Positions 26,949 through 37,376 of a stretch of DNA of 64,000 nucleotides are shown piece after piece. Both the position numbers and the translations under genes were made by a program. Within the stretch, counting starts at the first letter, position 1. The number at the start of each line of letters is the position of its first letter. The DNA is taken from NCBI GenBank assembly GCA_016200005.1, contig JACQFP010000042.1, positions 62,001-126,000 on the forward strand. The letters run 5' to 3'. Source of the DNA: Verrucomicrobiota bacterium. Lineage in GTDB: Bacteria > Verrucomicrobiota > Verrucomicrobiia > Limisphaerales > PALSA-1396. The notes beneath the pieces are model-generated. The model was not told the DNA's origin, did not search any database, and saw only the letters and a list, made by a program, of their open reading frames with translations.

Positions 26949-27097
26949 GGTAGGTTTGGCGGACGGCGGCTTAAGTCGGAAGCGGCCAACCTCACGACGC
27001 GACGATGTGCCGTTTATGAATACCCAAATGAGCCAGCGCCCGAAGCAATTCTCCTTGAACCACGCCACGTCAAAAACCAAACTCCCTGCAGCATTCA

Positions 27098-28369
27098 TTG
27101 AAGACAAATCTCTTCATCTTCTTTTTGGCGATCGGCCTCTCTCTCCCTGCTGCTGAAACGCAGCTTGCCGAGTGTGCGCCGCGCGTTGGGTTACCCAACT
27201 TCTTCGCCAAGCTGGATCGCGGCAACACCGTGCGCATCGGCTACCTCGGCGGCAGCATCACCGCGCAAGCAGGTTGGCGGCCCAAGACGCTCAAATGGTT
27301 TCAGCAGCAGTATCCCACGGCCACGATCAGCGAGATCAACGGCGCCATCGGCGGCACCGGTTCCGACCTCGGCGTCTTCCGCCTGCGCCATGATGTGCTG
27401 GAATTCAAGCCCGACCTGCTCTTCGTCGAGTTCGCGGTGAACGACGGCGGCGCGGCGTCGGAGCAAATCCACCGCTGCATGGAGGGCATCATCCGCCAAA
27501 CCTGGCGCGACAACCCGGCTACGGACATCTGCTTTGTCTATACCCTCGAAGGCCACATGCTCGACAGGCTCAAGGAAGATAAACTCCCTCACTCCTACGC
27601 AGCGATGGAGCAACTGGCCGAACACTACGGCATTCCCACCATCAATATGGGCCTGGCAGTCGCGCGATTGGAAAAGGCCGGCAAGCTGGTCTTCAAAGGC
27701 AAGAAACCCGTCACCGAAGAAGAGCAGGCTGCGCTCGGCGACAAGATTCTATTCTCCGAGGATGGCGTGCATCCGTTCCCCGACACCGGCCACCAGGTCT
27801 ATCTCGAATCCATCGTACGCGGCATGGCGCTGATCACACCCGCTGGAAAACCCGCGCCGCACAAACTGGGCGAGCCGTTTGCGGCTGACAACTGGGAACA
27901 TGCGAATTTGGTCCCGCTAAGCCGCGCCCAGCTCAGTTCCGGCTGGACGAAACTCGACCCCGTGACCAACAAGCTGGCGAAAACCTTTGGCCCGCGCCTC
28001 CCGGAACTGTGGAAAGCCAATCGTCCCGGCGAAACCATCCAATTCAAATTCCGCGGCACCTCCGCCAGCATCTTCGATCTGGTTGGCCCGGACTGCGGAC
28101 AGGTCATCGTCACGCTCGACAACCAGCCCCCCGCCGTCCGCCCGCGCTTTGATGCTTTCTGCACTTACCACCGCCTGGCCTCCCTCGCCATCGGCGTGAA
28201 CCTCACCAACCTCGTTCACACAGTAAAACTGGAAATCCATCCTGACCAGCCGGACAAGGCGAAAATCCTCAGCCAACGCAACGAGAAGATGGACCATTCG
28301 GAACGCTTCAACGACCGCGCCTGGTACGCGGGCGCGCTCATGCTGATCGGCGATCTGGTCACCGAATAG
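27098..28369 (+). CDS. Exported SGNH/GDSL hydrolase
   Basis: A 423-residue secreted esterase-like enzyme. It has a signal peptide (MKTNLFIFFLAIGLSLPAAE). SGNH blocks are clear: IGYLGGSITA (nucleophile Ser, residues 46-55), INGAIGGTGSDLG (Gly), FVEFAVNDGGA (Asn), and FSEDGVHPFPDTGH (Asp/His). A C-terminal beta domain (about 290-400) probably binds glycan. The start is TTG at 27098-27100; there is no better in-frame ATG. Such enzymes remove acetyl groups from polysaccharides. The 179 bases downstream (28370-28548) hold nothing I recognise. Confidence 0.88.
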   Translation: MKTNLFIFFLAIGLSLPAAETQLAECAPRVGLPNFFAKLDRGNTVRIGYLGGSITAQAGWRPKTLKWFQQQYPTATISEINGAIGGTGSDLGVFRLRHDVLEFKPDLLFVEFAVNDGGAASEQIHRCMEGIIRQTWRDNPATDICFVYTLEGHMLDRLKEDKLPHSYAAMEQLAEHYGIPTINMGLAVARLEKAGKLVFKGKKPVTEEEQAALGDKILFSEDGVHPFPDTGHQVYLESIVRGMALITPAGKPAPHKLGEPFAADNWEHANLVPLSRAQLSSGWTKLDPVTNKLAKTFGPRLPELWKANRPGETIQFKFRGTSASIFDLVGPDCGQVIVTLDNQPPAVRPRFDAFCTYHRLASLAIGVNLTNLVHTVKLEIHPDQPDKAKILSQRNEKMDHSERFNDRAWYAGALMLIGDLVTE

Positions 28370-28548
28370 GCGGGTGACTTGGAATACGGGATGCGCCTCG
28401 GCAACATTTAGAAGACCAGGTTTGCTGGCGACGGCACGTCGCCGACAATCCGGAACAGGCACGGCACGAGGCGGTCGTCGCCGAGCGGCTGGCGCGTGCT
28501 CGAGGAGTTTTCGCCAGCCTCGCGGTCGACGGCCAATAAACGTAACGG

Positions 28549-30465
28549 TCACAATCTCTCGCGAGCCATCATAACTTCAAATGCAGTCCAGCTACCGAAG
28601 AGAATTGCATAGATGTCGCTGTTCACTAAATAGTTTCTGTCAATGTCCATCTTGGTTGGTTTTCGGTTAAGCTTTCGGGCCAGCCGCTCATATTGGTAGA
28701 GGAGAATGCGGCGGATGTTGTGGCGAGTCGCGTAGGCCGGATCGAGTGTCTGGCTGGCGAAAACATCGATAACTCGGTCATCAAAGTTGACTTCGCAGCC
28801 CAATGGCAGATTCAAAATCTCTTTCCGCGTTCTCGCGCCACCGAGACCTGCCTGTTCGTCTTCTTCAAACGGAAGCAGTCCCTGATAGTCGAGAATCCTG
28901 TGCGCGTTTTTGAAGTTGCCAATGAAGTCGATGACGGTGCAGTGCGACTTCCCGACATATTTGCGCAGTCCACGCCCAAGTTGTTGATAGAAGATTCGCT
29001 TCGATTCCGTGGGCCTCAAGAACAGCAGGCATTCGATAAACGGCAGGTCTGCTCCCTCATTCAAAACATCCACAACGCAAAGAACGGGAACTGTTCCGCT
29101 CTTGAACTCCAGCAGCGTTTGATGGCGCTCCTGCCTGTCCGATTCGGATGTGTAAACCGCCGCAGCTATGCCTTCGGAGGCGAAGCTAGCGGCAACGCGC
29201 TCCGCGTGTTTAATGGAGCAGCAAAATGCTACCGTCGGCTTCCCTTCAGCTTTCTCGCGCCACTTCCGAATTATTGCGCGGTCTCGCTGCGGGACTATGA
29301 GTGCTTTTTCGAGGTCGCGAATACTGTAGGCCAGACCGTTGTGTTGGATTTGAGTGTAATCGACATCGTCGAAACATCCAAAGTAGTGGTATGGGCAGAG
29401 AACTCCGGTCTCGATTCCGAAGCGAAGCTCATAGCTGACAATCACGTTGCCGCTGCAAAGCTGCAGAATGTCCTGGCGGTCACCTCGAAAGGGTGTTGCC
29501 GTGAGCCCCAAGAGGAAACCCGGTTGGATACATTCGATGAGGCGGCGATATGATTTTGCCGCAGCGTGGTGAAACTCGTCGATGACGACGTAATCGAACT
29601 GACCGGCAGAGAGCTTCGCCAAGTTTTCCGCCAGCAGCTTGATCGTCGCGATGTTGACGCGGTTCAGTTGTCGGAATGAGGATGCTCGCTCCAAGCGAGC
29701 GACGCTGTCCGCGCCAAACTTTGCCTCGAACTCGGACTGGGCGACATCCAAGATTTCATGCGTGTGTGCGACGTAAAGCACGCAGCTTGGGTTGAGTGAT
29801 TTCGCATCCTCGGCGGAGATTCGCGTTTTACCGCTGCCGGGCGGCAACACCACCAATCCAGTCTTTTGTTTCAGAGCGTGGGCTGTTGACAAGCCCTCCA
29901 ACGCTTCCTTCTGTAGCAGGTTCAGAATCCGCTTCTTTGGCGAGTATCCACATTTGCATCGTCCGGCAGATATACGACTCGCGTCCTTGGGACAAAAGAA
30001 TCCGTGAGCAACGAATAGCCGCGCCAAATCTACCACGTCGAAAATCGCATAGTGACAGCCAATCTCCTCGCATGTGGAGCAGAACTGTTCCTTAGCTGGG
30101 TCAAGGATCGTTCCCGGCGCGGCAAACACCGCGAACTTCAATCCGTCGATTTTCTTGAGCCGGTAAATCTGATGCGAAACATCGGATTGTCGAACCGTAG
30201 GGAATGACTTCCCCTTCAAAACGAAAGCCGCCAAGCCATGCTGGCCTTTAACCGTGACCCTGTGCGTGAAGATGTCCGCGATTTCCATTGGGCCATGCGG
30301 TGTTTGGCCGAAGTCGGCGAGGATTGAACGAAGGAAAGGTTCTAACTCCTCTCGCTCGTCAAGCTTCTTTACCGCACGAACAAGTTCAGGCGTCACATCT
30401 GACGCGGAGAATTCCTTCGCCTCTTTGAAGTTGTCGAACGCTTCGATTGGAATCAGCAGGCTCAT
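28549..30465 (-). CDS. SF2 helicase with nuclease-like N-terminal domain
   Basis: A 638-residue DNA/RNA-stimulated ATPase. Residues 50-165 look like a small restriction-endonuclease-type domain (GLAAFVLKGKSFPTVRQSD, then EQFCSTCEEIGCHYAIFDVV), but I cannot fix a PD-(D/E)xK triad. A Cys pair CKCGYSPKKR at 170 leads into the helicase: Walker A LPPGSGKT near 207, DEFHHA box near 297, SAT-like GLTATPFRGD, motif V and VI QQLGRGLRK near 500. Stand-alone proteins of this layout resemble defence helicases; this role is inferred. It is AT-richer than neighbours and next to a decayed accessory region, hinting at transfer. Confidence 0.82.
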   Translation of the reverse strand: MSLLIPIEAFDNFKEAKEFSASDVTPELVRAVKKLDEREELEPFLRSILADFGQTPHGPMEIADIFTHRVTVKGQHGLAAFVLKGKSFPTVRQSDVSHQIYRLKKIDGLKFAVFAAPGTILDPAKEQFCSTCEEIGCHYAIFDVVDLARLFVAHGFFCPKDASRISAGRCKCGYSPKKRILNLLQKEALEGLSTAHALKQKTGLVVLPPGSGKTRISAEDAKSLNPSCVLYVAHTHEILDVAQSEFEAKFGADSVARLERASSFRQLNRVNIATIKLLAENLAKLSAGQFDYVVIDEFHHAAAKSYRRLIECIQPGFLLGLTATPFRGDRQDILQLCSGNVIVSYELRFGIETGVLCPYHYFGCFDDVDYTQIQHNGLAYSIRDLEKALIVPQRDRAIIRKWREKAEGKPTVAFCCSIKHAERVAASFASEGIAAAVYTSESDRQERHQTLLEFKSGTVPVLCVVDVLNEGADLPFIECLLFLRPTESKRIFYQQLGRGLRKYVGKSHCTVIDFIGNFKNAHRILDYQGLLPFEEDEQAGLGGARTRKEILNLPLGCEVNFDDRVIDVFASQTLDPAYATRHNIRRILLYQYERLARKLNRKPTKMDIDRNYLVNSDIYAILFGSWTAFEVMMARERL

Positions 30466-30488
30466 TCTTTTGTTTGTTCTTTCAGTTC

Positions 30489-30512
30489 GAGCCTCCTCAC
30501 GTCGGCTGCTAC
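30489..30512 (-). repeat. Solo REP-like hairpin, GTAG head
   Basis: On the minus strand GTAG (30512-30509) precedes AGCCGACGTGAGGAGGCT, a variant of the 52415 family. It lies just upstream of the helicase start and exactly after UbiD-like fragment one. Confidence 0.65.
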
Positions 30513-30526
30513 GGATAAAAGAGTTT

Positions 30527-30658
30527 TCACACCTTCGCCTTCACCGCCGCATCCATCTTGATGAGCGGCGGCCAGGGGCGTTTGAAGCCTTCGCCGGGGA
30601 TTTTCTTCGTCGCATCGATGCCGAGTTTGCTACCGGACGGTTTCACGCGCGGGTCAGC
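30527..30658 (-). pseudogene. UbiD-like decarboxylase 3' fragment, copy 1
   Basis: In frame behind the HigA-like N-terminus are 43 residues: KLGIDATKKIPGEGF, RPWPPLIKMD, AAVKAKV. This matches the C-terminal region of UbiD-family decarboxylases, which end in an IDAT-x-K-x-P-GE ... DP-x-V-x-x-x-VD-x-x-W type of pattern. The stop interrupts what would be VKLF. No other part of the enzyme is present. Two related fragments lie at 30953 and 31862. Confidence 0.6.
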
Positions 30659-30793
30659 GCGTTTGCGCTGATGAAAAGATTGCGCGAGCTGCCAGGTGAC
30701 AACTCTTTTGAGCGCGCCGGCTTCGCATTCCGCGAGCAAACCTTCCTGCGCGAGAAAGTCGTCGAAGTTTGAACCGATATGCCCTTTCTTCAT
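30659..30793 (-). pseudogene. HigA-like antitoxin, N-terminal remnant
   Basis: The 45 residues from the ATG at 30791-30793 (KKGHIGSNFDDFLAQEGLL, then a helix ending in KRVVTWQLAQSF) match the N-terminus of small XRE-type HigA antitoxins. The helix-turn-helix that should follow is missing, replaced in frame by UbiD-like fragment one. It lies 4 bp downstream of the HigB remnant, the toxin-first order typical of higBA. Confidence 0.7.
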
Positions 30794-30797
30794 GGCG

Positions 30798-30953
30798 CTA
30801 TTGTAGCAGACGCAGGCGAGATTTCGCCAATGTCAATTCTTCCTGCGGCGGCTTTTGAGATTTCTTGATGAAGCCGTGCAGCAGAATCATCCGCCGTGCG
30901 CCGGTGGTGAACAGCACTCGTGCAATCCCGTCAGGCAGCCGGATGTCGTTCAT
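30798..30953 (-). pseudogene. HigB/Gp49-like toxin, C-terminal remnant
   Basis: 51 residues from an ATG: LPDGIARVLFTTGARRMILL, HGFIKKSQKPPQEELTLA, SRLRLL. These are the last strands and C-terminal helix of the RelE-fold HigB (phage Gp49-like) mRNA interferase. The N-terminal half is absent. Its ATG overlaps the TGA ending UbiD-like fragment two (TGATG), so the two pieces join seamlessly. Confidence 0.75.
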
Positions 30954-31068
30954 CAGCGATTGAAAAGTTGATCAATTCTCTCTTGCGCCGCTTCGGACAT
31001 TTTGAGAGCGACGGTCAAGGACGTTTCAAACCTTCACCCGGCAATGTCTTCGTCGCGTCATTCATCAT
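30953..31068 (-). pseudogene. UbiD-like decarboxylase 3' fragment, copy 2
   Basis: Reading with one internal stop and a one-base slip: MNDATKTLPGEGLKRP, stop, then LKMSEAAQERIDQLFNR and TGA. It corresponds residue for residue to copy 1 (IDATKKIPGEGFKRP ... KMDAAVKAKV). It is broken and cannot be made as one protein. The upstream end abuts a palindromic repeat at 31075. Confidence 0.6.
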
Positions 31069-31074
31069 GGAGCA

Positions 31075-31113
31075 CCCCCTCACCTTGGTCCTCTCCCCCG
31101 ATGGGGGAGAGGA
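31075..31113 (+). repeat. CCCTCACC...CTCTCCCCC palindromic repeat, copy R1
   Basis: A CCCCCTCACC lead is followed by the hairpin CCTCTCCCCC-gat-GGGGGAGAGG. It lies at the left end of the DUF559 unit and points towards it. Confidence 0.85.
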
Positions 31114-31150
31114 AATTGTTCGTCGCGTTCATCTTTGGTGTTCTTTGGCG

Positions 31151-31192
31151 TCCCCCTCATCCCGGCCTTCTCCTCCGGTGGGGGGAGAAGGA
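31151..31192 (+). repeat. Palindromic repeat, copy R2
   Basis: Lead CCCCCTCATCCCGGCC, hairpin CCTTCTCC against GGGGAGAAGG. Same orientation as R1, 76 bp away. It encodes the last residues of the DUF559 protein. Confidence 0.85.
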
Positions 31193-31843
31193 GTCCGAAA
31201 GGGGCGATGCAATTTTGGACGTGCGGCGTTGCGACTCCCTCTCCCCCATCGGGGGAGAGGGTTGGGGTGAGGGGGCAGGCTTGGGCAAGTAACCAGCGAT
31301 TTCTTTGTGGCGACCCGTCCGCTCCATCAACGCGTGCCAGATTTCAAAGCGGATGGCTTCCAGTTCGCCGCGCAATTGGTGATTCCAGAAGCGCAACACC
31401 TTGATACCCTGCTCAGCAAGGAATTGATTTCGCTTCTCGTCTCTCGCCCGTTGGTCAGGGAAACCGTGTCCACCGCCATCGAGTTCGACGGCCAACTTGG
31501 CGAGCGTGCAGTAGAAGTCGAGGAAGTAGATACCGCAGGGATATTGGCGGCGGAACTTGAATTCAGAAAAGCGCCGGTCGCGGAGCAATCGCCACAGGCG
31601 TTTTTCCGCATCGGTGGATTCCCTACGTAGGTGGCGGGCGAAGTCGCGGGCGTCGGCGGTGCGAGTGCGGTGCTTGCCGGATTGCCCCCGTTGCCCCCTC
31701 ACCCTGACCCTCTCCCCCGATGAGGGAGAGGGAATTCGGCGCGCGCCACCGTTGGTGTTGGATGTTGGTTGCGGCAGGGCGCGCGTTCCTCCTCTCCCCT
31801 CGGAGGGGAGAGGATTGAGGTGAGGGGTGGCGCCTTTGTTCAT
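31157..31843 (-). CDS. DUF559 endonuclease-like protein bracketed by palindromic repeats
   Basis: A 228-residue frame. The core (about residues 62-180) is the DUF559 domain, related to very-short-patch-repair/restriction nucleases: ARHLRRESTDAEKRLWRLLR, FKFRRQYPCGIYFLDFYC, LAVELDGGGHGFPDQRARDE, IKVLRFWNHQL. The usual DGGQH motif reads DGGGH here. The N-terminal 45 and C-terminal 40 residues (PSPQPSPPMGERESQRR) are translations of palindromic repeats R5/R4 and R3/R2. No ATG lies between R4 and the core, so the ATG at 31841-31843 is used. The nuclease activity is inferred from the family. Confidence 0.8.
   Translation of the reverse strand: MNKGATPHLNPLPSEGRGGTRALPQPTSNTNGGARRIPSPSSGERVRVRGQRGQSGKHRTRTADARDFARHLRRESTDAEKRLWRLLRDRRFSEFKFRRQYPCGIYFLDFYCTLAKLAVELDGGGHGFPDQRARDEKRNQFLAEQGIKVLRFWNHQLRGELEAIRFEIWHALMERTGRHKEIAGYLPKPAPSPQPSPPMGERESQRRTSKIASPLSDSFSPHRRRRPG
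31234..31275 (-). repeat. Palindromic repeat, copy R3 (inverted)
   Basis: The hairpin CCCTCTCCCCC-atc-GGGGGAGAGGG is followed by TTGGGGTGAGGGGG, the reverse orientation of R1 and R2. It lies directly at the 3' side of the DUF559 core. Confidence 0.85.
31693..31732 (+). repeat. Palindromic repeat, copy R4
   Basis: Lead GCCCCCTCACCCTGA, hairpin CCTCTCCC-ccgat-GAGGGAGAGG. It lies directly at the 5' side of the DUF559 core, facing away from R3. Confidence 0.85.
31790..31830 (-). repeat. Palindromic repeat, copy R5 (inverted)
   Basis: The hairpin CCTCTCCCCT-cgg-AGGGGAGAGG is followed by ATTGAGGTGAGGGG. Inverted relative to R4, so R4 and R5 form a head-to-head pair. Confidence 0.85.
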
Positions 31844-31861
31844 ATTGAACGTGGGGGCAAT

Positions 31862-31937
31862 CTTATGGGTTCCGAAAAGTTTATCCACCCTCGCCTGCAC
31901 AGCTTTCGTCCATTTTGATCAGCGGCGGCCAAGGGCG
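31862..31937 (-). pseudogene. UbiD-like decarboxylase 3' fragment, copy 3
   Basis: Directly after the DJ-1 gene's TGA the sequence reads RPWPPLIKMDE and, after a one-base slip, VQARVDKLFGTHK. This matches copies 1 and 2. Only the last 25 or so residues are present. The tail runs in frame into the DUF559 reading frame. Confidence 0.6.
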
Positions 31938-32699
31938 TCATTTTGGCCCCTGAACGAGGCCGTGTAACTCAGCATAAGGATCCCAGGAGGGATCGCGGTG
32001 CCACTCATACTCGCTCCCATTGGCGAGGTTATCGGCGGTCTTTTTGCCGAAGAGGCGTTCGACGACATGCAGCGTCATGTCCATCCCCGCCGAGACGCCG
32101 GAGGAGGTCACAATCCTGCCGTCATCCACCCAGCGGGCGCGCTTGACCCACTTGACGTTCGGCCAGGGCGTCGTGGCGCGCGACCAAAAGGCCTTGTTCG
32201 TTGTCGCGGGGCGGCCATCCAGCAGGCTCGCGGCGGCGAGGACTGACGCGCCATTGCAGACGGACATGGTGATCTCGGCCTTCGCGGACCGCTCGCGGAG
32301 CCAATCCAGCGTCTCGGTATCTTTGAGGACGTCCAGCGCACCGAACCCGCCGGGGATAAGAATCAGATCGAGCGGCGGACAATCTTTGAACCCAAACTCG
32401 GCGACGGTTTTTGGTCCTTGGGATGAAGTGATCTCGCCCTTCTCGCGGGCGACGGTGACGACTTTGACCTTGCCCTTCAGGTTGCCCCACATTTCGAGCG
32501 GACCATAAGCGTCGAGCAATTCGAACCCGGGAAAAATCACGATACCCAGCGTACGCACTTTCTCCAACTGGGCGGTGGCGGCAGGTTTCGGTTGCTCCGG
32601 CTTTTGGTCATCCGCCGCGAGCGATTGCCCGACTGTGAGCGCCCAAACAAGGGCGATTGAGAATAGGGCCGATGCCCTGATGAGATGCGAGGTTTTCAT
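31938..32699 (-). CDS. Exported DJ-1/PfpI family protein
   Basis: A 253-residue protein. The signal peptide (ALFSIALVWALTVGQSLAAD) ends near 29. The DJ-1/PfpI fold follows: LGIVIFPGFELLDAYGP at 51-67 with the conserved Glu60, DLILIPGGFGALDV at 111-124, and the nucleophile elbow SVCNGASVLA with Cys148. Closest in style to the isonitrile-hydratase or GATase1-like branch. Periplasmic location is unusual but shared with some PVC relatives. The start ATG at 32697-32699 gives the signal peptide. Its stop abuts UbiD-like fragment three. Confidence 0.87.
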   Translation of the reverse strand: MKTSHLIRASALFSIALVWALTVGQSLAADDQKPEQPKPAATAQLEKVRTLGIVIFPGFELLDAYGPLEMWGNLKGKVKVVTVAREKGEITSSQGPKTVAEFGFKDCPPLDLILIPGGFGALDVLKDTETLDWLRERSAKAEITMSVCNGASVLAAASLLDGRPATTNKAFWSRATTPWPNVKWVKRARWVDDGRIVTSSGVSAGMDMTLHVVERLFGKKTADNLANGSEYEWHRDPSWDPYAELHGLVQGPK

Positions 32700-32817
32700 G
32701 TTTTGGCTCCTTGAGTGAGTGAAAGAAATCTGCTTTTGCATGAAGGACACGATAAGCCTACAAAAGTGTGTGGCGCAAGAATGAAGCGGAATCAGGCCTC
32801 CAGCAGATTTGCCAAAA

Positions 32818-34392
32818 TCACAGAGCCAATTCTTTGAGCATGGCGACGGTTTCATCGACAATCCGTTCGCCGGTGCCGGGTTCGGCGTAGCTGTGAAAGC
32901 CAGTCCAGCACTGGTAGCCGCCGAGCTTGTGGCCTTCCTGGTTCGGAATGTAACCGATCCAATCGTTGGCGAGTTCCGCAATGTAAGTGTGGCGGAATGG
33001 CGAACGGTTTTTGATGTCCAGACCCAGTTGCGTGAAGAACTCGGCGGGCACGGCGACAATGGCCACGTCGCCGATGCGCATAACTTGAAGCCAGGTTTCG
33101 CGTTCCTGCCCGCGCAGCGGAGCAAGTTTATTTCGCATGTTGCGAAAGACCGGGATGATCTGGTCGGCGTGACCCGGCGCATACTTCCGGCAGTATCGCG
33201 TGACGGCTTCCTCTTCGCGCGCTTCGTCAAAGTTGCGGACCTTGAATTTGAACGGGCGTTTGATGGCAGCCAGCTTTTCTACCGGGCGCGGCTTGGCCTG
33301 GGTGAGCGCGTCCTGGACGGCTTGCTTGATTCGTTTGGTCATCTCATCGCACGTCAGGTTGAGGTTGTGGGTCGAGCCAGAAGCGCCTTCCAGAAAGCAA
33401 ACGGTGCCGCTGAGTTCAGTTTCCAATTCCTGCGCGGCCAGACCGTAAAACGACGGCGAACGGACTCCGGGTTTGCGCGTGCCGATGCTGTGCGTCGAAT
33501 GGTTGAAGATGATCGCGCGCAGTTTGTCGGCGGGATCGCGAAAGGCTAGCAACGGCAGTTCGGGATCGAAGGGGCCGGTGGGCCGGACGAAATCGTCGCG
33601 CGGTCCAATCCAAAAAATCGACCCGTCGGCGAGCAGCATCCGGCTGTTCTGGCCCACGGTCTTTTCTTCACCGAGCTGGAAGTAGAACCGACAATCTTCT
33701 TTGGAAAGATCGGCGTTGGCTTCTTGCACGGCTTGGACGATGCCGCGTTGCACTCGTTTTGAAAATGTTTCGTCCAATCCATAACCATGCACGACCATGG
33801 TGCTCGGCGCATGGTGCGTGTGGGTGCAGTTGATGAGGATATTGGCTGCGGGAATGGCGGTCGTTTTTTCAATTTCGGCTACCACCGGATCAAGCCATTC
33901 GCGAGTGATCATCAAAATGTCGCACGCCACGATGGCCAGTTTGCCGAAGGGCCTTTGTTCGAGAACGACCGCAACAGCGCGCAGTTTGCCTTCCTGTCCA
34001 GTCGCTTTGCCGGGAGTGATGCCGCCCGCGATGATCATGGAATCGTCGGCCTCGAATTCAGCGGCAGCCGCACCGACGCGCAATCCAGCAAAGGCAGCAG
34101 GCGGATTGTTTGTCGCAAGTTTTTCCGCCGCCTGACCCAATGTCGTGAAAACCACAACGAAACAAATGATCGACCTTGAAACGGCAGTTGAGATGAACCC
34201 CGTGGAGTAGGCGGCAATACTCCACGGGGTGAACCGCGAACCACACGAACCACGCGAAAACAAGGCGCTTGAAAGGGATGGGAAGCGGAGGGGATCCTTT
34301 ACCCGGCGGGTGAAGAAAGCCTTTTCCGAACGCCCTTCTCCGTTCGCGTATTTCGTGTGTTTCGCGGTTTCCTCTGCTTCTTTTAGGTTCAC
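32818..34392 (-). CDS. Neutral/alkaline ceramidase-like protein
   Basis: About 430 recognisable residues of the neutral ceramidase N-terminal domain, a zinc amidase fold. DMRVGAAAAEFE-like start (GLRVGAAAAEFEADD), the His-rich ILINCTHTHHAPSTMV near 165-180, IFNHSTHSIGTRKP near 295, and the C-terminal NDWIGYIPNQEGHKLGGYQ. In this environment it may cleave amide bonds in glycans or peptides. The start is uncertain: the frame opens at a GTG at 34392, but the first 70 or so residues translate the repeat at 34198-34371, and no ATG lies nearer the hydrophobic segment SIICFVVVFTTLGQAA. Confidence 0.8.
   Translation of the reverse strand: MNLKEAEETAKHTKYANGEGRSEKAFFTRRVKDPLRFPSLSSALFSRGSCGSRFTPWSIAAYSTGFISTAVSRSIICFVVVFTTLGQAAEKLATNNPPAAFAGLRVGAAAAEFEADDSMIIAGGITPGKATGQEGKLRAVAVVLEQRPFGKLAIVACDILMITREWLDPVVAEIEKTTAIPAANILINCTHTHHAPSTMVVHGYGLDETFSKRVQRGIVQAVQEANADLSKEDCRFYFQLGEEKTVGQNSRMLLADGSIFWIGPRDDFVRPTGPFDPELPLLAFRDPADKLRAIIFNHSTHSIGTRKPGVRSPSFYGLAAQELETELSGTVCFLEGASGSTHNLNLTCDEMTKRIKQAVQDALTQAKPRPVEKLAAIKRPFKFKVRNFDEAREEEAVTRYCRKYAPGHADQIIPVFRNMRNKLAPLRGQERETWLQVMRIGDVAIVAVPAEFFTQLGLDIKNRSPFRHTYIAELANDWIGYIPNQEGHKLGGYQCWTGFHSYAEPGTGERIVDETVAMLKELAL
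34198..34371. repeat. Hairpin plus inverted repeat with CGCGAA/CACACGAA arms
   Basis: 34198-34229 is a perfect 12-base-pair hairpin (CCCCGTGGAGTA and its complement). Next to it, 34231-34260 (GAACCGCGAACCACACGAAC and on) pairs imperfectly with 34343-34371 across about 80 bases. Both arms are degenerate 8-9 base units. It is translated as the N-terminus of the ceramidase-like frame. Confidence 0.7.
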
Positions 34393-34410
34393 GGTGGAAT
34401 TGTGTTCGCC

Positions 34411-35724
34411 TCAAACTCCCTTTGGCACGGCCCAGTGTCCGTCACGATACGTCCGGTGAACGAGACGATTCGCCTCTTCGTCGCCTTCAATTTGCTCGGT
34501 CACGGGGTTGAAATGGAGCGTGCGACCGACGCGCGTGGCGATGTTGCCCAAATGACAAAGGGCGGCGGAGAGGTGCCCGATCTCGACATCGGCGTTGGGC
34601 CGCTTGTCATTCTTCAGGCAATCCAGAAAGTTACGGTGATGGGCCGGGCCGTCGGGCTTTCCGGTCATTTTTTCGCGAGGTTCATTGCGCGGCCCGAACA
34701 GTTGCCAGCCGCCGCTTTTGCCGAGCACCAACATTCCTTTCGTACCGTAAAAGGCGTTTCCGTTTTCGTGACCTTCCTGCACGTAAGGCGACCAGATGCG
34801 CTGCTCGAAGATGAGTTGCTTCTTGCGCTGGCCGTCGCCGTGGTATTTGAAGACGACGTATTGCGTGTCGGGGAATTGCTGGTCGTCATCGAAGAAATAT
34901 TTCCCGCCCAGCGCGGCGATAGTTGAAGGATGGGTCTCGACGCCCAATCCCCAGCGGGCGATGTCGAGATCGTGAACGCCGTCGTTGCCCATGTCGCCGG
35001 TGCCGAAGGCGTACCACCAACGCCAGATACCCGGGAGCAGGTTGGATTGATAGGACACCACCGGCGCCGGCCCGAGCCACGTATCAAAGTCGAGGTTCGA
35101 CGGCGGATCGGAGGGTTTCGCATGGCCGATGCTGCGGCGAAGCTGGCTGTTCCAGGCTTTGGAAACGAGGATATCGCCAATCGCGCCATTGTGCAGAAGT
35201 TCCATCGCCTTCATCACATGCTCAGTGCTGCGGCTTTGCGTGCCGGTCTGCACAACGCGCTTGTTGCGTCGCGCGGCCTCGATCATCAACCGTCCCTCAC
35301 GAATGTTGTGGCAGCACGGTTTCTCCACATAGACATGCTTGCCGGCGGCGCAGGCCAGGATGGTTGCCGGCGCGTGCCAATGATCGGGAGTCGCGATGAT
35401 GACAGCATCGACGGATTTGTCCTCCAGGATGCGGCGCAAATCCTTCACGGACTTTGGCGCTTTGCCAGAAGTGGTTTCGACTTCCTTCGCGGCCTTGGCC
35501 ATCCGGTCGGCATCCACGTCGCAGACATAGGCGAACTCGACATCCTTTTGAGCCGCGAAAGATTTCAAGAGGTTCGTGCCCATGCCGCCCGGCCCAATAA
35601 CGCCCATGACGACTTTCTCGTTGGCACCAGCAGCGCGGGCTGGATTGGCGAATCCGAGGGCGGCAGTGCCGGCGACGAGCGCGCCGGTTTGTTTCAGGAA
35701 TTGTCGGCGATCAGTAGTCTTCAT
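34411..35724 (-). CDS. Tat-exported Gfo/Idh/MocA oxidoreductase
   Basis: A 437-residue NAD(P)-dependent sugar dehydrogenase-like protein. The N-terminus TTDRRQFLKQTGALVAG is a twin-arginine signal. The Rossmann motif VIGPGGMG follows at about 42-49, then VIIATPDHWHAP near 108 and the family signature YVEKPCCHN near 131. The C-terminal domain has the motif MGNDGVHDLDIARWGLG with the catalytic His/Asp region. PVC genomes carry many such exported copies, thought to act on sugars in the periplasm with bound cofactor. It lies 19 bp from the ceramidase frame, possibly co-transcribed. Confidence 0.92.
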   Translation of the reverse strand: MKTTDRRQFLKQTGALVAGTAALGFANPARAAGANEKVVMGVIGPGGMGTNLLKSFAAQKDVEFAYVCDVDADRMAKAAKEVETTSGKAPKSVKDLRRILEDKSVDAVIIATPDHWHAPATILACAAGKHVYVEKPCCHNIREGRLMIEAARRNKRVVQTGTQSRSTEHVMKAMELLHNGAIGDILVSKAWNSQLRRSIGHAKPSDPPSNLDFDTWLGPAPVVSYQSNLLPGIWRWWYAFGTGDMGNDGVHDLDIARWGLGVETHPSTIAALGGKYFFDDDQQFPDTQYVVFKYHGDGQRKKQLIFEQRIWSPYVQEGHENGNAFYGTKGMLVLGKSGGWQLFGPRNEPREKMTGKPDGPAHHRNFLDCLKNDKRPNADVEIGHLSAALCHLGNIATRVGRTLHFNPVTEQIEGDEEANRLVHRTYRDGHWAVPKGV

Positions 35725-35821
35725 AACGAATCAGCGGGTTTGAAGAATTGATGCCATGTTCCAAAATAATTGTCACGACTTTGTGATGTCGTAATGGATG
35801 ACCACGGGAAGAGGTTGATGA

Positions 35822-35866
35822 AATAAAAAAGCCGTTGCGCGCCTTTCAACGGGCTACGCAACGACT
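35822..35866 (-). terminator. Rho-independent terminator
   Basis: On the minus strand the stem GTTGCG ... CGCAAC plus GGC is followed by TTTTTTATTT (35831-35822). It lies 47 bp after the stop of the four-repeat protein at 35913, so it ends that transcript. The gap 35725-35912 otherwise shows nothing. Confidence 0.8.
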
Positions 35867-35912
35867 TTTCAACCACCAAAAGTTATTATTTTTTCAGCGG
35901 CAACAAGGAATG

Positions 35913-37376
35913 TTAAATAGACCGTTTGGCGTTCCAATCGTAGGTCTTGCTTTCGCCGCTCCAGTCGGACTCGATTTTGCCCTTGATGGAGTTGCCGTCC
36001 AGCTTGCCTTTGAATTTAGCTACCTGCGTCTTGCCATCTTCTTCACGAGTGACCTTCAATGTCACCTCGTTGTCCTTGACCAGGCCTTCCAGGATGGGCG
36101 CTTCGTTGTCGCCCAACACCACAACGCCGGAGAGCTTATCGCCTTCCTGCTTGAGTTTCAGGCTCAGTTCAATCGAATCTCCACCTTCAGTGGTGAGCAC
36201 CCAATTCCAAGTGCCGGTGGCGTTGCCCGCTCCGGCGCTTGCCGTGGCCGCGCTGCCGGCGGTTTTTTCCCGGCTGGCATTCCAATCGTAGGTCTTGTTT
36301 TCACCGCTCCAGTCGGATTCGATCTTGCCTTTGATGGAGTCCCCGTTGAGTTTGCCTTTGAATTTGGCGACCTGCGTCTTGCCATCTTCTTCGCGGGTGA
36401 CTTTCAGGGTCACCTCGTTGTCCTTGACCAGGCCTTCCAGGATGGGCGCTTCGTTGTCCCCCAACACCACCACGCCGGACAGTTTTTCACCGTCCTGCTT
36501 AAGCTTCAGACTGAGTTCGATCGAATCTCCGCCTTCAGTGGTGAGCACCCAATTCCAAGTGCCGGCAGCACTACCCGCTCCCGCGCTGGCGGTGGAACTG
36601 GCAGCGGCTTTTTCGCGCGTGGCATTCCAATCGTAGTTGTGATTTTCCCCACCCCAGTCCGAATCAATCTTGCCCTTGATGGTATCGCCGCTCAGCGTGC
36701 CTTTGTACTTGGAGGTGAATTTCTGCCCGCCGGTATCGACGGGAATTTTGAAGGAGATGGCGTCGCCGACAACTTTGCCCTCCGTGATGGGAGCTTCGAA
36801 GTCGCCCATGCTGACCTTGCCGGTCACATTCTCGCCTTCCTGCTTCAGGTTGAGGACGAGATTCAACGCATCGCCGCTTTCGACGGTGATGGCGTATTTC
36901 CAGGAGCCCGTCGTACCCGCCGCAGCGCTAGACGCGGCGGCAGTCGTCGATCCTTCGCGTTTGGCCTGCCAGTCCGCGGTGCGGTTCTCCCCGCCGTAAT
37001 TGGATTGCAGCTTGCCCTTCAGAGTGTCGCCGCTCAATTTGGCCGCCACAGTCGTCGTGATCTTTTCGCCGTTCCGTTCGCGGACCGATTTGATCGCAAG
37101 GTCGTCGCCCGTGAGTTTGATTTCGTCAATCGGGTATTCATTGCCATTGCGGCCAACGATGACACCGTTGAACTTGGCGCCTTCTTGTTTGATCTTGAGA
37201 GTGGACTCGATGGTCTGTCCATCAGCGGTGGTGAAGCTGGCCTTCCAGGTGCCCGCCGCATTGTTTTCCGCGGCCAGGGCTGCGGCATTCAGCCAGCCCA
37301 ATGTGAGGGTCAATGCCGCCAATGGCAGCGTTGCTTTGAATGAGGATTGTTTGAGGAATTTCATGCGAATATTCAT
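35913..37376 (-). CDS. Secreted protein of four tandem lipocalin-like repeats
   Basis: A 487-residue protein with a signal peptide (residues 10-35) and four beta-rich repeats of about 110-116 residues, starting near 40, 155, 266 and 382. Each opens with GTW-x-W/A and holds LKQEG-x-K/N-x-x-G and PI-x-EG, and ends GKI-x-SDW-x-GEN-x-YDW. Repeats 3 and 4 are nearly identical (SIELSLKLKQDGEKLSGVV versus SIELSLKLKQEGDKLSGVV), with a DNA period of 348 bp. No catalytic residues are evident. A scaffold or ligand-binding role is possible. A terminator follows its stop. Confidence 0.85.
   Translation of the reverse strand: MNIRMKFLKQSSFKATLPLAALTLTLGWLNAAALAAENNAAGTWKASFTTADGQTIESTLKIKQEGAKFNGVIVGRNGNEYPIDEIKLTGDDLAIKSVRERNGEKITTTVAAKLSGDTLKGKLQSNYGGENRTADWQAKREGSTTAAASSAAAGTTGSWKYAITVESGDALNLVLNLKQEGENVTGKVSMGDFEAPITEGKVVGDAISFKIPVDTGGQKFTSKYKGTLSGDTIKGKIDSDWGGENHNYDWNATREKAAASSTASAGAGSAAGTWNWVLTTEGGDSIELSLKLKQDGEKLSGVVVLGDNEAPILEGLVKDNEVTLKVTREEDGKTQVAKFKGKLNGDSIKGKIESDWSGENKTYDWNASREKTAGSAATASAGAGNATGTWNWVLTTEGGDSIELSLKLKQEGDKLSGVVVLGDNEAPILEGLVKDNEVTLKVTREEDGKTQVAKFKGKLDGNSIKGKIESDWSGESKTYDWNAKRSI

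What the first reader, a model, noticed from the sequence alone, without database searches (positions are those of the whole stretch)
30466..31945. UbiD-like 3' ends alternating with a toxin-antitoxin remnant and a DUF559 nuclease
Reading the minus strand from right to left the order is: UbiD-like 3' fragment 3 (31862-31937), a DUF559 nuclease unit with palindromic repeats, UbiD-like fragment 2 (30953-31068), HigB remnant, HigA remnant, UbiD-like fragment 1 (30527-30658), REP unit. The three fragments share the pattern DATK-x-x-PGEG-x-KRP ... KM-x-x-A but differ in sequence, so they are not one fresh duplication. Two cargos each sit between copies of the same gene end, which looks like repeated insertion at a fixed 3'-end site with the end being rebuilt, or a relic cassette array. 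That interpretation is inference; three independent decayed ubiD genes is the plain alternative.
Basis: partly seen in the sequence, partly recalled or inferred. Interest (0 to 1): 0.72.

Follow-up and report, generated by a model that had tools for sequence, protein, structure and literature searches.

The report
Toxin cassettes inserted at gene ends
In a group of environmental bacteria, small selfish or defence gene sets sit directly behind a household gene and are each followed by a spare copy of that gene's tail, which suggests how such gene sets can spread between distant relatives without breaking the gene they land in.

Summary
Three diverged ubiD 3' ends (nhmmer E 2e-32, 1e-14, 3e-10) lie in the window, separated by a DUF559 gene and HigBA remnants. 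They are not three dead ubiD genes. In the order (Limisphaerales) 29 of 138 genomes match the ubiD tail more than once (13 of 58; 16 of 80). In loci with a near-full ubiD every displaced 3' end lies downstream on the same strand, behind changing cargo. Cargo end and ubiD junction recur together: 7 groups, 24 of 55 tails. For 13 of 17 tails the best intact match is another family's ubiD, not their own. ubiD is a hub, not the only target: other genes of this genome show gene, cargo, gene tail, and 14 of 33 PIN/HigB loci are flanked by direct repeats against 13 of 400 random places. Best reading: cassettes of [gene end + cargo] enter by recombination at a conserved gene end and leave the old end behind. 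Closest known: restriction-modification insertion with long target duplication; minimal mobile elements. New variant; mechanism inferred.

The parts
31938..32699 (-). DJ-1/PfpI gene, neighbour of fragment 3; its stop codon (31938-31940) abuts the ubiD tail
   Evidence: PF01965 E 2.4e-23; sequence; tail start
31871..31938 (-). displaced ubiD 3' end 3 (residues 488-510)
   Evidence: nhmmer E 2.5e-10; 90% over 30 nt to fragment 1
31157..31900 (-). DUF559 ORF; its first codons (QARVDKLFGTHK) are the in-frame end of ubiD tail 3
   Evidence: PF04480 E 6.3e-34, residues 84-191; the ORF listing
31692..31834 (.). palindromic repeats at the 5' side of the DUF559 domain
   Evidence: the repeat finder D1, D2, I1, I2, I4
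31069..31277 (.). palindromic repeats at the 3' side of the DUF559 domain
   Evidence: the repeat finder D1, D2, I1-I3
30958..31060 (-). displaced ubiD 3' end 2 (residues 476-511), ending RIDQLFNR*; the intact ubiD of G008 ends KIDQLFNR* before what reads as a HigB start (contig ends 92 nt later)
   Evidence: nhmmer E 9.5e-15; translation; L057
30798..30953 (-). HigB-like (Gp49) remnant
   Evidence: PF05973 E 1.5e-9; longer match with two stops
30680..30793 (-). HigA remnant (MKKGHIGSNFDDFLAQEGLLAECEAGALKRVVTWQLAQ), 3' part lost
   Evidence: translation; intact relative by eye in G003, L044:665-940
30643..30684 (-). last codons of a second cassette (RNLFISANALTRA*), same cassette end as in L054, L094, L165 and L199
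   Evidence: junction group of 5
30513..30648 (-). displaced ubiD 3' end 1 (residues 465-511)
   Evidence: nhmmer E 2.3e-32; E 1.6e-19 with the 68-aa tail query
30489..30512 (-). REP-like unit GTAGCAGCCGACGTGAGGAGGCTC directly after tail 1, as after several ubiD ends in relatives (the name REP is recalled)
28549..30465 (-). helicase/restriction-type gene that starts right behind tail 1; probably the next cargo
   Evidence: ResIII PF04851 3.5e-27; PADLOC mREase_IV 1e-55
28373..28416 (-). possible internal ubiD fragment (residues 318-332) behind the helicase; weak
   Evidence: nhmmer E 0.0085

Best explanation
The region is a decayed array of small cargo cassettes anchored on the 3' end of ubiD. 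A cassette is [end of a conserved gene + short spacer + cargo gene(s)]. Incoming DNA recombines with the resident gene inside its conserved 3' part; the resident gene stays whole with the incoming end, the cargo lies behind it, and the old 3' end (from the junction point to the stop) is left behind the cargo. Repetition gives tandem gene ends with different cargo between them. Shown: the anatomy, its recurrence, the recurring junctions, ubiD ends of different ancestry in one locus, similar anatomy at other genes. Inferred: that the recombination is the cell's own homologous recombination, that a cassette is born by joining the far end through short or no homology, and that the finished cassette then moves by its two homology arms. 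Much of the cargo examined is toxin-antitoxin, restriction/defence or transposase-like; some is ordinary (a short-chain dehydrogenase, DJ-1/PfpI, several kilobases of ordinary genes in G015).
For: More than one tail match in 13 of 58 (E 0.01) and 16 of 80 genomes (E 0.001; a 17th, G103, has two full ubiD genes and is not counted), 19 family labels. Of 157 loci with near-full ubiD (some are one genome fetched twice), 27 have extra pieces, 22 after dropping five repeats; all 3'-end pieces are downstream and same strand; the only upstream piece is N-terminal (L124). Control query in 13 genomes picked for their tails: 39 ubiD tail matches, 26 beyond one per genome (one of these at 35% identity), and 4 inner ubiD pieces besides the gene, against 1 weak extra for the ilvB tail and none for the sdhA tail or the ilvB and sdhA inner segments beyond paralogues of at most 50% identity in long ORFs; uvrB likewise, apart from one genome with uvrB in two pieces. 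Cargo end and junction recur together: 7 groups, 24 of 55 tails. G028 and G015, different families, share ubiD's 3' half and a cassette at 75-98% over about 1.38 kb, then 33-43%; G074 and G083 share 80% over 1.49 kb behind ubiD, the whole length compared. 13 of 17 displaced tails match another family's intact ubiD best. Window genome: 8 of 605 ORFs have a tail copy downstream on the same strand (9 copies) against 1 upstream and 1 opposite; complete genome G097 without arrays: 0 of 259. Toxin loci: 14 of 33 with flanking direct repeats against 13 of 400 (Fisher p 1.2e-10); four other array genomes 4 of 28 against 4 of 300 places drawn from ubiD loci of other genomes.
Against: No vector, circular form or recombinase was seen. 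In 4 of 17 tails the own locus is the best match, and in 4 of the other 13 the margin is 20 bits or less. Gene heads recur too in the window's genome (7 copies upstream and 2 downstream of their ORF), and in the toxin locus L323 the repeated piece reads as a gene's 5' end, so 3' ends are not the only pieces copied. Inner ubiD pieces occur (residues 287-348 around a toxin pair in G037; 329-433 in G083). The synonymous-identity test is biased, since partners were picked by their body identity, and several lineages without a seen tail score as high as array lineages. pN/pS of end against tail, 0.33 (ubiD) and 0.36 (other genes), lies below simulated decay of the tail alone (0.80), but one living and one dead copy should give a value between, so it does not decide. 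Almost all genomes are metagenome assemblies and several contigs end inside ubiD. Junction clustering would also follow from site-specific recombination. At least L326 and L338 among the 14 toxin loci look like a dispersed intergenic repeat. 8 of the 20 cargo proteins that I chose for Pfam had no match.
Confidence: 0.68

Rival explanations
1. Insertion with long target duplication: the cargo (toxin-antitoxin, restriction) inserts by itself and copies about 50-230 bp of target each time; one copy then decays.
For: Toxin loci in this genome lie between direct repeats of 48-232 bp, as reported for restriction-modification units (PMC3874152, passages; PMC3031569, passages). Several genes other than ubiD are hit, and not only at 3' ends.
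Against: 13 of 17 ubiD tails are closer to another family's ubiD than to their own, and intact ends carry cargo-specific last codons (read by eye), which a copy of the resident target would not give. Not tested for the other genes.
Confidence: 0.22
2. A site-specific, integron-like system in which the ubiD 3' end is the attachment site and a recombinase acts in trans.
For: Compact cassettes, recurring junctions, integron integrase genes over the curated cut-off in 9 of 16 array genomes and in 0 of 14 control genomes.
Against: In 20 stretches around integrase-like genes (254 kb) the best ubiD match is E 0.018, an N-terminal piece, so no tail. A crude attC-like motif pair occurs 0.07 per kb in arrays and 0 to 1.2 per kb in 9 integron stretches; 4 of those 9 have none, so this is weak. 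Junctions fall at several places and other genes serve too.
Confidence: 0.08
3. Tandem full-length ubiD genes that decayed step by step.
For: Some inner ubiD pieces exist (G037, G083, G004, window genome C62).
Against: Copies are nearly all 3' ends with junctions shared between genomes; one N-terminal remnant near ubiD was seen; cargo often ends within 25 nt of the tail.
Confidence: 0.01
4. Assembly chimaeras of related strains at a conserved gene.
For: Metagenome assemblies; several contigs end in ubiD, among them C70 and C45 of the window's genome.
Against: Like junctions occur in separate assemblies; arrays lie inside long contigs (window contig 165.8 kb; G129 C73 500 kb).
Confidence: 0.01

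Closest known systems
Insertion with long (and variable) target duplication of restriction-modification units (Nobusato 2000, Furuta 2010; known to me only as cited in PMC3874152 and PMC3031569, passages)
   Same: Selfish TA-like unit between direct repeats on the order of 100 bp, no transposase of its own
   Different: Here mostly toxin-antitoxin and mixed cargo, repeated use of one household gene end over many families, and (at ubiD) repeats of different ancestry
Minimal mobile elements of Neisseria (definition in passages of PMC3082526)
   Same: Whole-gene cassettes beside a conserved gene, spread by homologous recombination
   Different: There two conserved flanking genes; here one gene end, repeated behind each cargo
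Orphan rhs-CT arrays (PMC3967940, passages)
   Same: Displaced 3' fragments of a main gene downstream of it, each with its module; recombination through the shared stretch
   Different: There the displaced fragment encodes the toxin; here it is a copy of a decarboxylase end
Homology-facilitated illegitimate recombination (start of abstract of PMC3240628 in search listing)
   Same: One homologous anchor, other end joined without homology; could create a cassette
   Different: A mechanism, not an element; not demonstrated here
ParE/ParD-like module behind maOC1 in Microcystis (PMC7935541, passages)
   Same: Toxin-antitoxin pair behind a gene, between 152-bp direct repeats
   Different: First repeat lies 14 bp after the stop codon, outside the gene; single case
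Integrons (features recalled)
   Same: Arrays of compact one- or two-gene cassettes
   Different: No integrase on the array contigs looked at, no ubiD tail near integrases, homologous gene end instead of attC

Membership tests
Insertion with long target duplication | insert flanked by direct repeats on the order of 100 bp | tested here: met
Insertion with long target duplication | the repeats are two copies of one local target | tested here: not met
   for ubiD, 13 of 17 tails match another family best; not tested for the other genes
Insertion with long target duplication | empty site known in a close relative | not tested
   no close pair with and without one insert was compared
Minimal mobile element | different whole-gene cassettes at one conserved place in different genomes | tested here: met
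Minimal mobile element | two conserved genes flank the cassettes | tested here: not met
   the far side is a displaced end of the same gene
Minimal mobile element | spread by homologous recombination | tested here: inconclusive
   ends of foreign ancestry seen; the enzyme could not be tested
Integron | integrase gene next to the array | tested here: not met
   the nine integrases over the cut-off lie on other contigs than the arrays; no ubiD tail around 20 integrase-like genes
Integron | attC sites between cassettes | tested here: inconclusive
   crude motif pair only, absent from 4 of 9 integron stretches too; no attC covariance model was run
UbiD family | fragments derive from ubiD | tested here: met

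The most novel reading that the evidence does not exclude
Limisphaerales share a common pool of gene-end cassettes: portable units in which a toxin-antitoxin, restriction or transposase module travels with the 3' end of a conserved gene as a built-in homology arm. ubiD is the shared docking site between families, and the same mode explains a large part of the toxin-antitoxin insertions in some of these genomes.
Probability: 0.4. Interest if true: 0.85.

Novelty: new variant of a known kind. Interest (0 to 1): 0.74.

Why it matters
How toxin-antitoxin and small defence modules move without a transposase or integrase of their own is an open question. Here the scars are preserved: displaced gene ends record insertions, the junction identifies the cassette, and the unharmed household gene explains why insertion is tolerated. 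It gives a searchable signature (cargo followed by a copy of the upstream gene's tail) that can be run over all genomes.

Tried and rejected
Integron: not supported, though the attC part of the test is weak. Phage or plasmid vector: the 68-aa tail gives nothing in IMG/VR (15 pattern matches, none confirmed), in the plasmid collection or the phage collection. tRNA-linked island: no tRNA at 27000-36000. Chance: reversed-window control. 'Any conserved gene does this': speaks against it for ilvB, sdhA and uvrB, but other genes do show it. Outside the order: of 114 other genomes in the phylum sample 8 match the tail, each once (distant UbiD proteins would be missed by this query). 'Tail identity minus body identity' as a test of shared cassettes was uninformative: 7 sharing pairs mean -0.05, 2860 non-sharing pairs mean -0.06. 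pN/pS was set aside as not decisive; the two L044 rows (ratios 1.61 and 3.60) may use the wrong copy as the intact end. Papers: ubiD with Verrucomicrobia (53 papers, 10 seen as listing, none of the 10 with the word ubiD), Limisphaerales with toxin-antitoxin (10 of 1,167 seen), target duplication (10 of 17, 8 of 11 and 15 of 277 seen) listed no account of ubiD ends; one open-access library only.
Full report
What is in the window. The window lies at C42:62001-126000 of a 6.54-Mb, 87-contig genome. Relatives found with the ubiD of G004 are titled Limisphaerales, Verrucomicrobia subdivision 3 or plain Verrucomicrobia; a few titles (Klebsiella, Akkermansia, Proteobacteria) look like mislabelled assemblies. 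On the minus strand the order is: DJ-1/PfpI gene; ubiD tail 3; DUF559 gene between palindromic repeats; ubiD tail 2; HigB and HigA remnants; the last codons of another cassette; ubiD tail 1; a REP-like unit; a helicase that PADLOC scores best as type IV restriction enzyme. The tails are certain (E 2.3e-32, 9.5e-15, 2.5e-10; reversed control 1.2).

The same arrangement elsewhere in this genome. C45 holds two ubiD ends about 130 nt apart, the first on what appears to be the true ubiD, whose beginning stands at the end of contig C70. C14 holds a short-chain dehydrogenase (by eye) between two ubiD ends; the same kind of gene follows ubiD directly in G052.

Relatives. With the 68-aa tail, 13 of 58 genomes and 16 of 80 further genomes have more than one match; G103, with two full genes, is not counted. 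Of the 88 further genomes then known, 8 were left out: seven without UbiD and G059 with a distant one. Examples read at base level: G003, ubiD end, intact HigBA, ubiD end, 604-aa gene, ubiD end; G019, ubiD, DUF3800 gene, ubiD end, DUF433 gene and partner, ubiD end; G037, ubiD, antitoxin and PIN toxin, short ubiD end, and elsewhere a DUF433-like/DUF5615 pair between two copies of an inner ubiD segment; G129, ubiD, a gene that reads as a REP-associated transposase (no Pfam match), ubiD end; G110, ubiD, IS200-like gene, PIN toxin, ubiD end; G081, ubiD and further end pieces. Of 20 cargo proteins that I chose, 12 have a Pfam match, among them PIN, Gp49, DUF433, DUF5615, DUF3800, DUF4062, SNF2 helicase, DNA methylase, IS200-like transposase and ADP-ribosylglycohydrolase; 8 have none. 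In G015 the stretch between ubiD and its displaced end is about 6 kb and includes ordinary genes. In a phylum sample the 8 other genomes that match the tail do so once each.

Is ubiD special? In 13 array genomes a joined control query found 39 ubiD tail matches, 26 beyond one per genome, and 4 inner ubiD pieces besides the gene; it found one weak extra for the ilvB tail and no fragment for the other control segments. The 13 genomes were chosen because they had ubiD tails, so this compares genes, not genomes.

Direction and junctions. Of 204 loci (2.14 Mb), 157 hold a near-full ubiD. Extra pieces occur in 27, or 22 after removing five loci that repeat the same contig. Every 3'-end piece is downstream and on the same strand; the only upstream piece is N-terminal. 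Of the 27 listed loci, 22 have more than 1.1 kb upstream, so upstream pieces could have been seen, but more sequence was on hand downstream. Tails start in clusters near residues 440, 457-459, 465-470 and 474-477. The 70 nt before 55 tails fall into seven groups (6, 5, 4, 3, 2, 2, 2 = 24 tails) in which cargo end and ubiD start recur together (null score at most 15, threshold 24). In 22 of the 24 the ubiD start agrees with its group within three residues; L054 (472 against 465-467) and L168 (434 against 440-441, its match running into the palindrome) differ. Four groups hold members with different family labels, one (L092, L099) is within one family, and two contain loci without a family label; the largest group holds two tails of one locus. 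The window's tail 1 belongs to the group of five.

Ancestry of the ends. At 4-fold degenerate sites, over all 2867 pairs of different families, mean identity is 0.40-0.44 in ubiD residues 1-150, 0.45-0.46 in residues 170-350 and 456-500, and 0.52-0.57 in residues 351-455. The eleven loci marked as arrays have 0.59-0.80 in residues 170-430 with their five closest foreign partners, against 0.34-0.62 at the N-terminus of the same pairs. This is suggestive only: partners were picked by body identity, and lineages with no tail seen (for instance L061, L110, L106, L105) score as high. G028 and G015 share much of ubiD's 3' half at 88-100% and a cREC/ADP-ribosylglycohydrolase cassette at 75-98% over 23 windows of 60 nt, then 33-43%; G074 and G083 share a methylase region at 80% over the 1.5 kb compared. 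The clearest result: 13 of 17 displaced tails (12 loci) match an intact ubiD of another family better than that of their own locus; for C45 of this genome 93.7% over 189 nt against 72.7% over 172 nt. In four of the 13 the margin is 20 bits or less; the four exceptions are both G019 tails, one of G077 and that of G110. Tails of L165, L168, L176, L183, L189 and L199 were not in this test.

Not only ubiD. A scan of 605 ORFs in 871 kb of this genome finds nine copies of gene tails downstream on the same strand for eight ORFs, one upstream and one opposite. Gene heads recur as well: seven copies upstream, two downstream. In 400 kb of a complete genome without arrays (259 ORFs) no tail recurs and four head copies occur, all in one stretch; in 505 kb of ubiD loci of other genomes (360 ORFs) one tail copy lies upstream and none downstream. 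ORFs were called mechanically, so a few may be false. Read in detail, gene and cargo names by eye: moxR, a toxin-antitoxin-like pair, moxR tail, HicBA-like pair, moxR tail; ubiA, antitoxin and PIN toxin, ubiA tail; a gene on C9, MazEF-like pair, its tail; a gene on C25, DUF4062-like gene, its tail. Of 34 PIN or HigB loci one has overlapping flanks and is dropped; of the remaining 33, 14 have direct repeats of at least 50 bits between the left and right 1.5 kb, against 13 of 400 random places of the same geometry. The window's HigB is one of the 14, at exactly 50 bits. The repeats are 48-232 bp and 76-93% identical; some lie at gene ends, in either orientation to the toxin, others elsewhere; L326 and L338 look like a dispersed intergenic repeat, and in L323 the repeated piece reads as a gene's 5' end. 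In four other array genomes 4 of 28 loci have such repeats (30 of 114 matches were cut out, 2 with short flanks dropped; in L357 the repeat is 582 nt long and may be a gene duplication), against 4 of 300 places in ubiD loci of other genomes; none has inverted repeats of that strength.

Mechanism. The facts at ubiD ask for foreign DNA that carries a gene end with its cargo and recombines with the resident gene. A single crossover of a circle, or a linear piece with the gene end on one side and its copy on the other, gives the observed product. Birth of a cassette needs one junction between cargo end and the gene interior, for which homology-facilitated illegitimate recombination is a ready candidate (PMC3240628, start of abstract in listing). 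These steps are inferred. pN/pS values (0.33 and 0.36) do not decide, because the simulated decay (0.80) lets only the tail change. For the other genes, insertion with long target duplication remains as good an account, and the head copies fit it. Limits: metagenome assemblies, family labels given by the tool without names, some gene names recalled or by eye.

Known relatives. Restriction-modification units are said to insert with long, variable target duplications (PMC3874152 and PMC3031569, passages); minimal mobile elements are whole-gene cassettes between two conserved genes (PMC3082526, passages); orphan rhs-CT modules resemble displaced 3' fragments (PMC3967940, passages); one cyanobacterial toxin-antitoxin pair lies between 152-bp direct repeats (PMC7935541, passages). 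The present case joins features of these but meets the full definition of none that was tested, hence 'new variant of a known kind'.

Noticed in passing
G000 contigs C3 (L069) and C45/C70: Three genes of what looks like the menaquinone route (ubiD, and by eye ubiA and an mqnC-like gene) all have displaced tails in this genome.
   Followed up: partly
L265:90-2710 (G045:C231): The 3' end of what looks like a type I restriction specificity gene is repeated three times downstream, spaced by repeats.
   Followed up: no
L252:271-1858 (G052:C258): The 3' end of an integron integrase gene is repeated directly behind the gene.
   Followed up: no
L011, L044, L086, L087, L112, L259: A regulator-like gene (PaaX-like by eye, whole or in part) recurs near ubiD ends in several families; in L011 it runs opposite to ubiD.
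   Followed up: no
L045:2839-6397 (G004): Three-gene cargo behind ubiD with a SNF2 helicase resembling ZorD/DpdE and two proteins without Pfam match: candidate defence system.
   Followed up: partly
L139, L141, L143, L159: In family f2 an ORF of 236-238 aa starts 5-7 nt after the ubiD stop in all four genomes fetched: a kept neighbour, unlike the changing cargo of array lineages.
   Followed up: no
array genomes: Integron integrase genes over the curated cut-off in 9 of 16 array genomes.
   Followed up: partly
L323 and L261 (G000:C26): A toxin locus where the repeated flank reads as the 5' end of the gene behind it: a mirror image of the tail copies.
   Followed up: no
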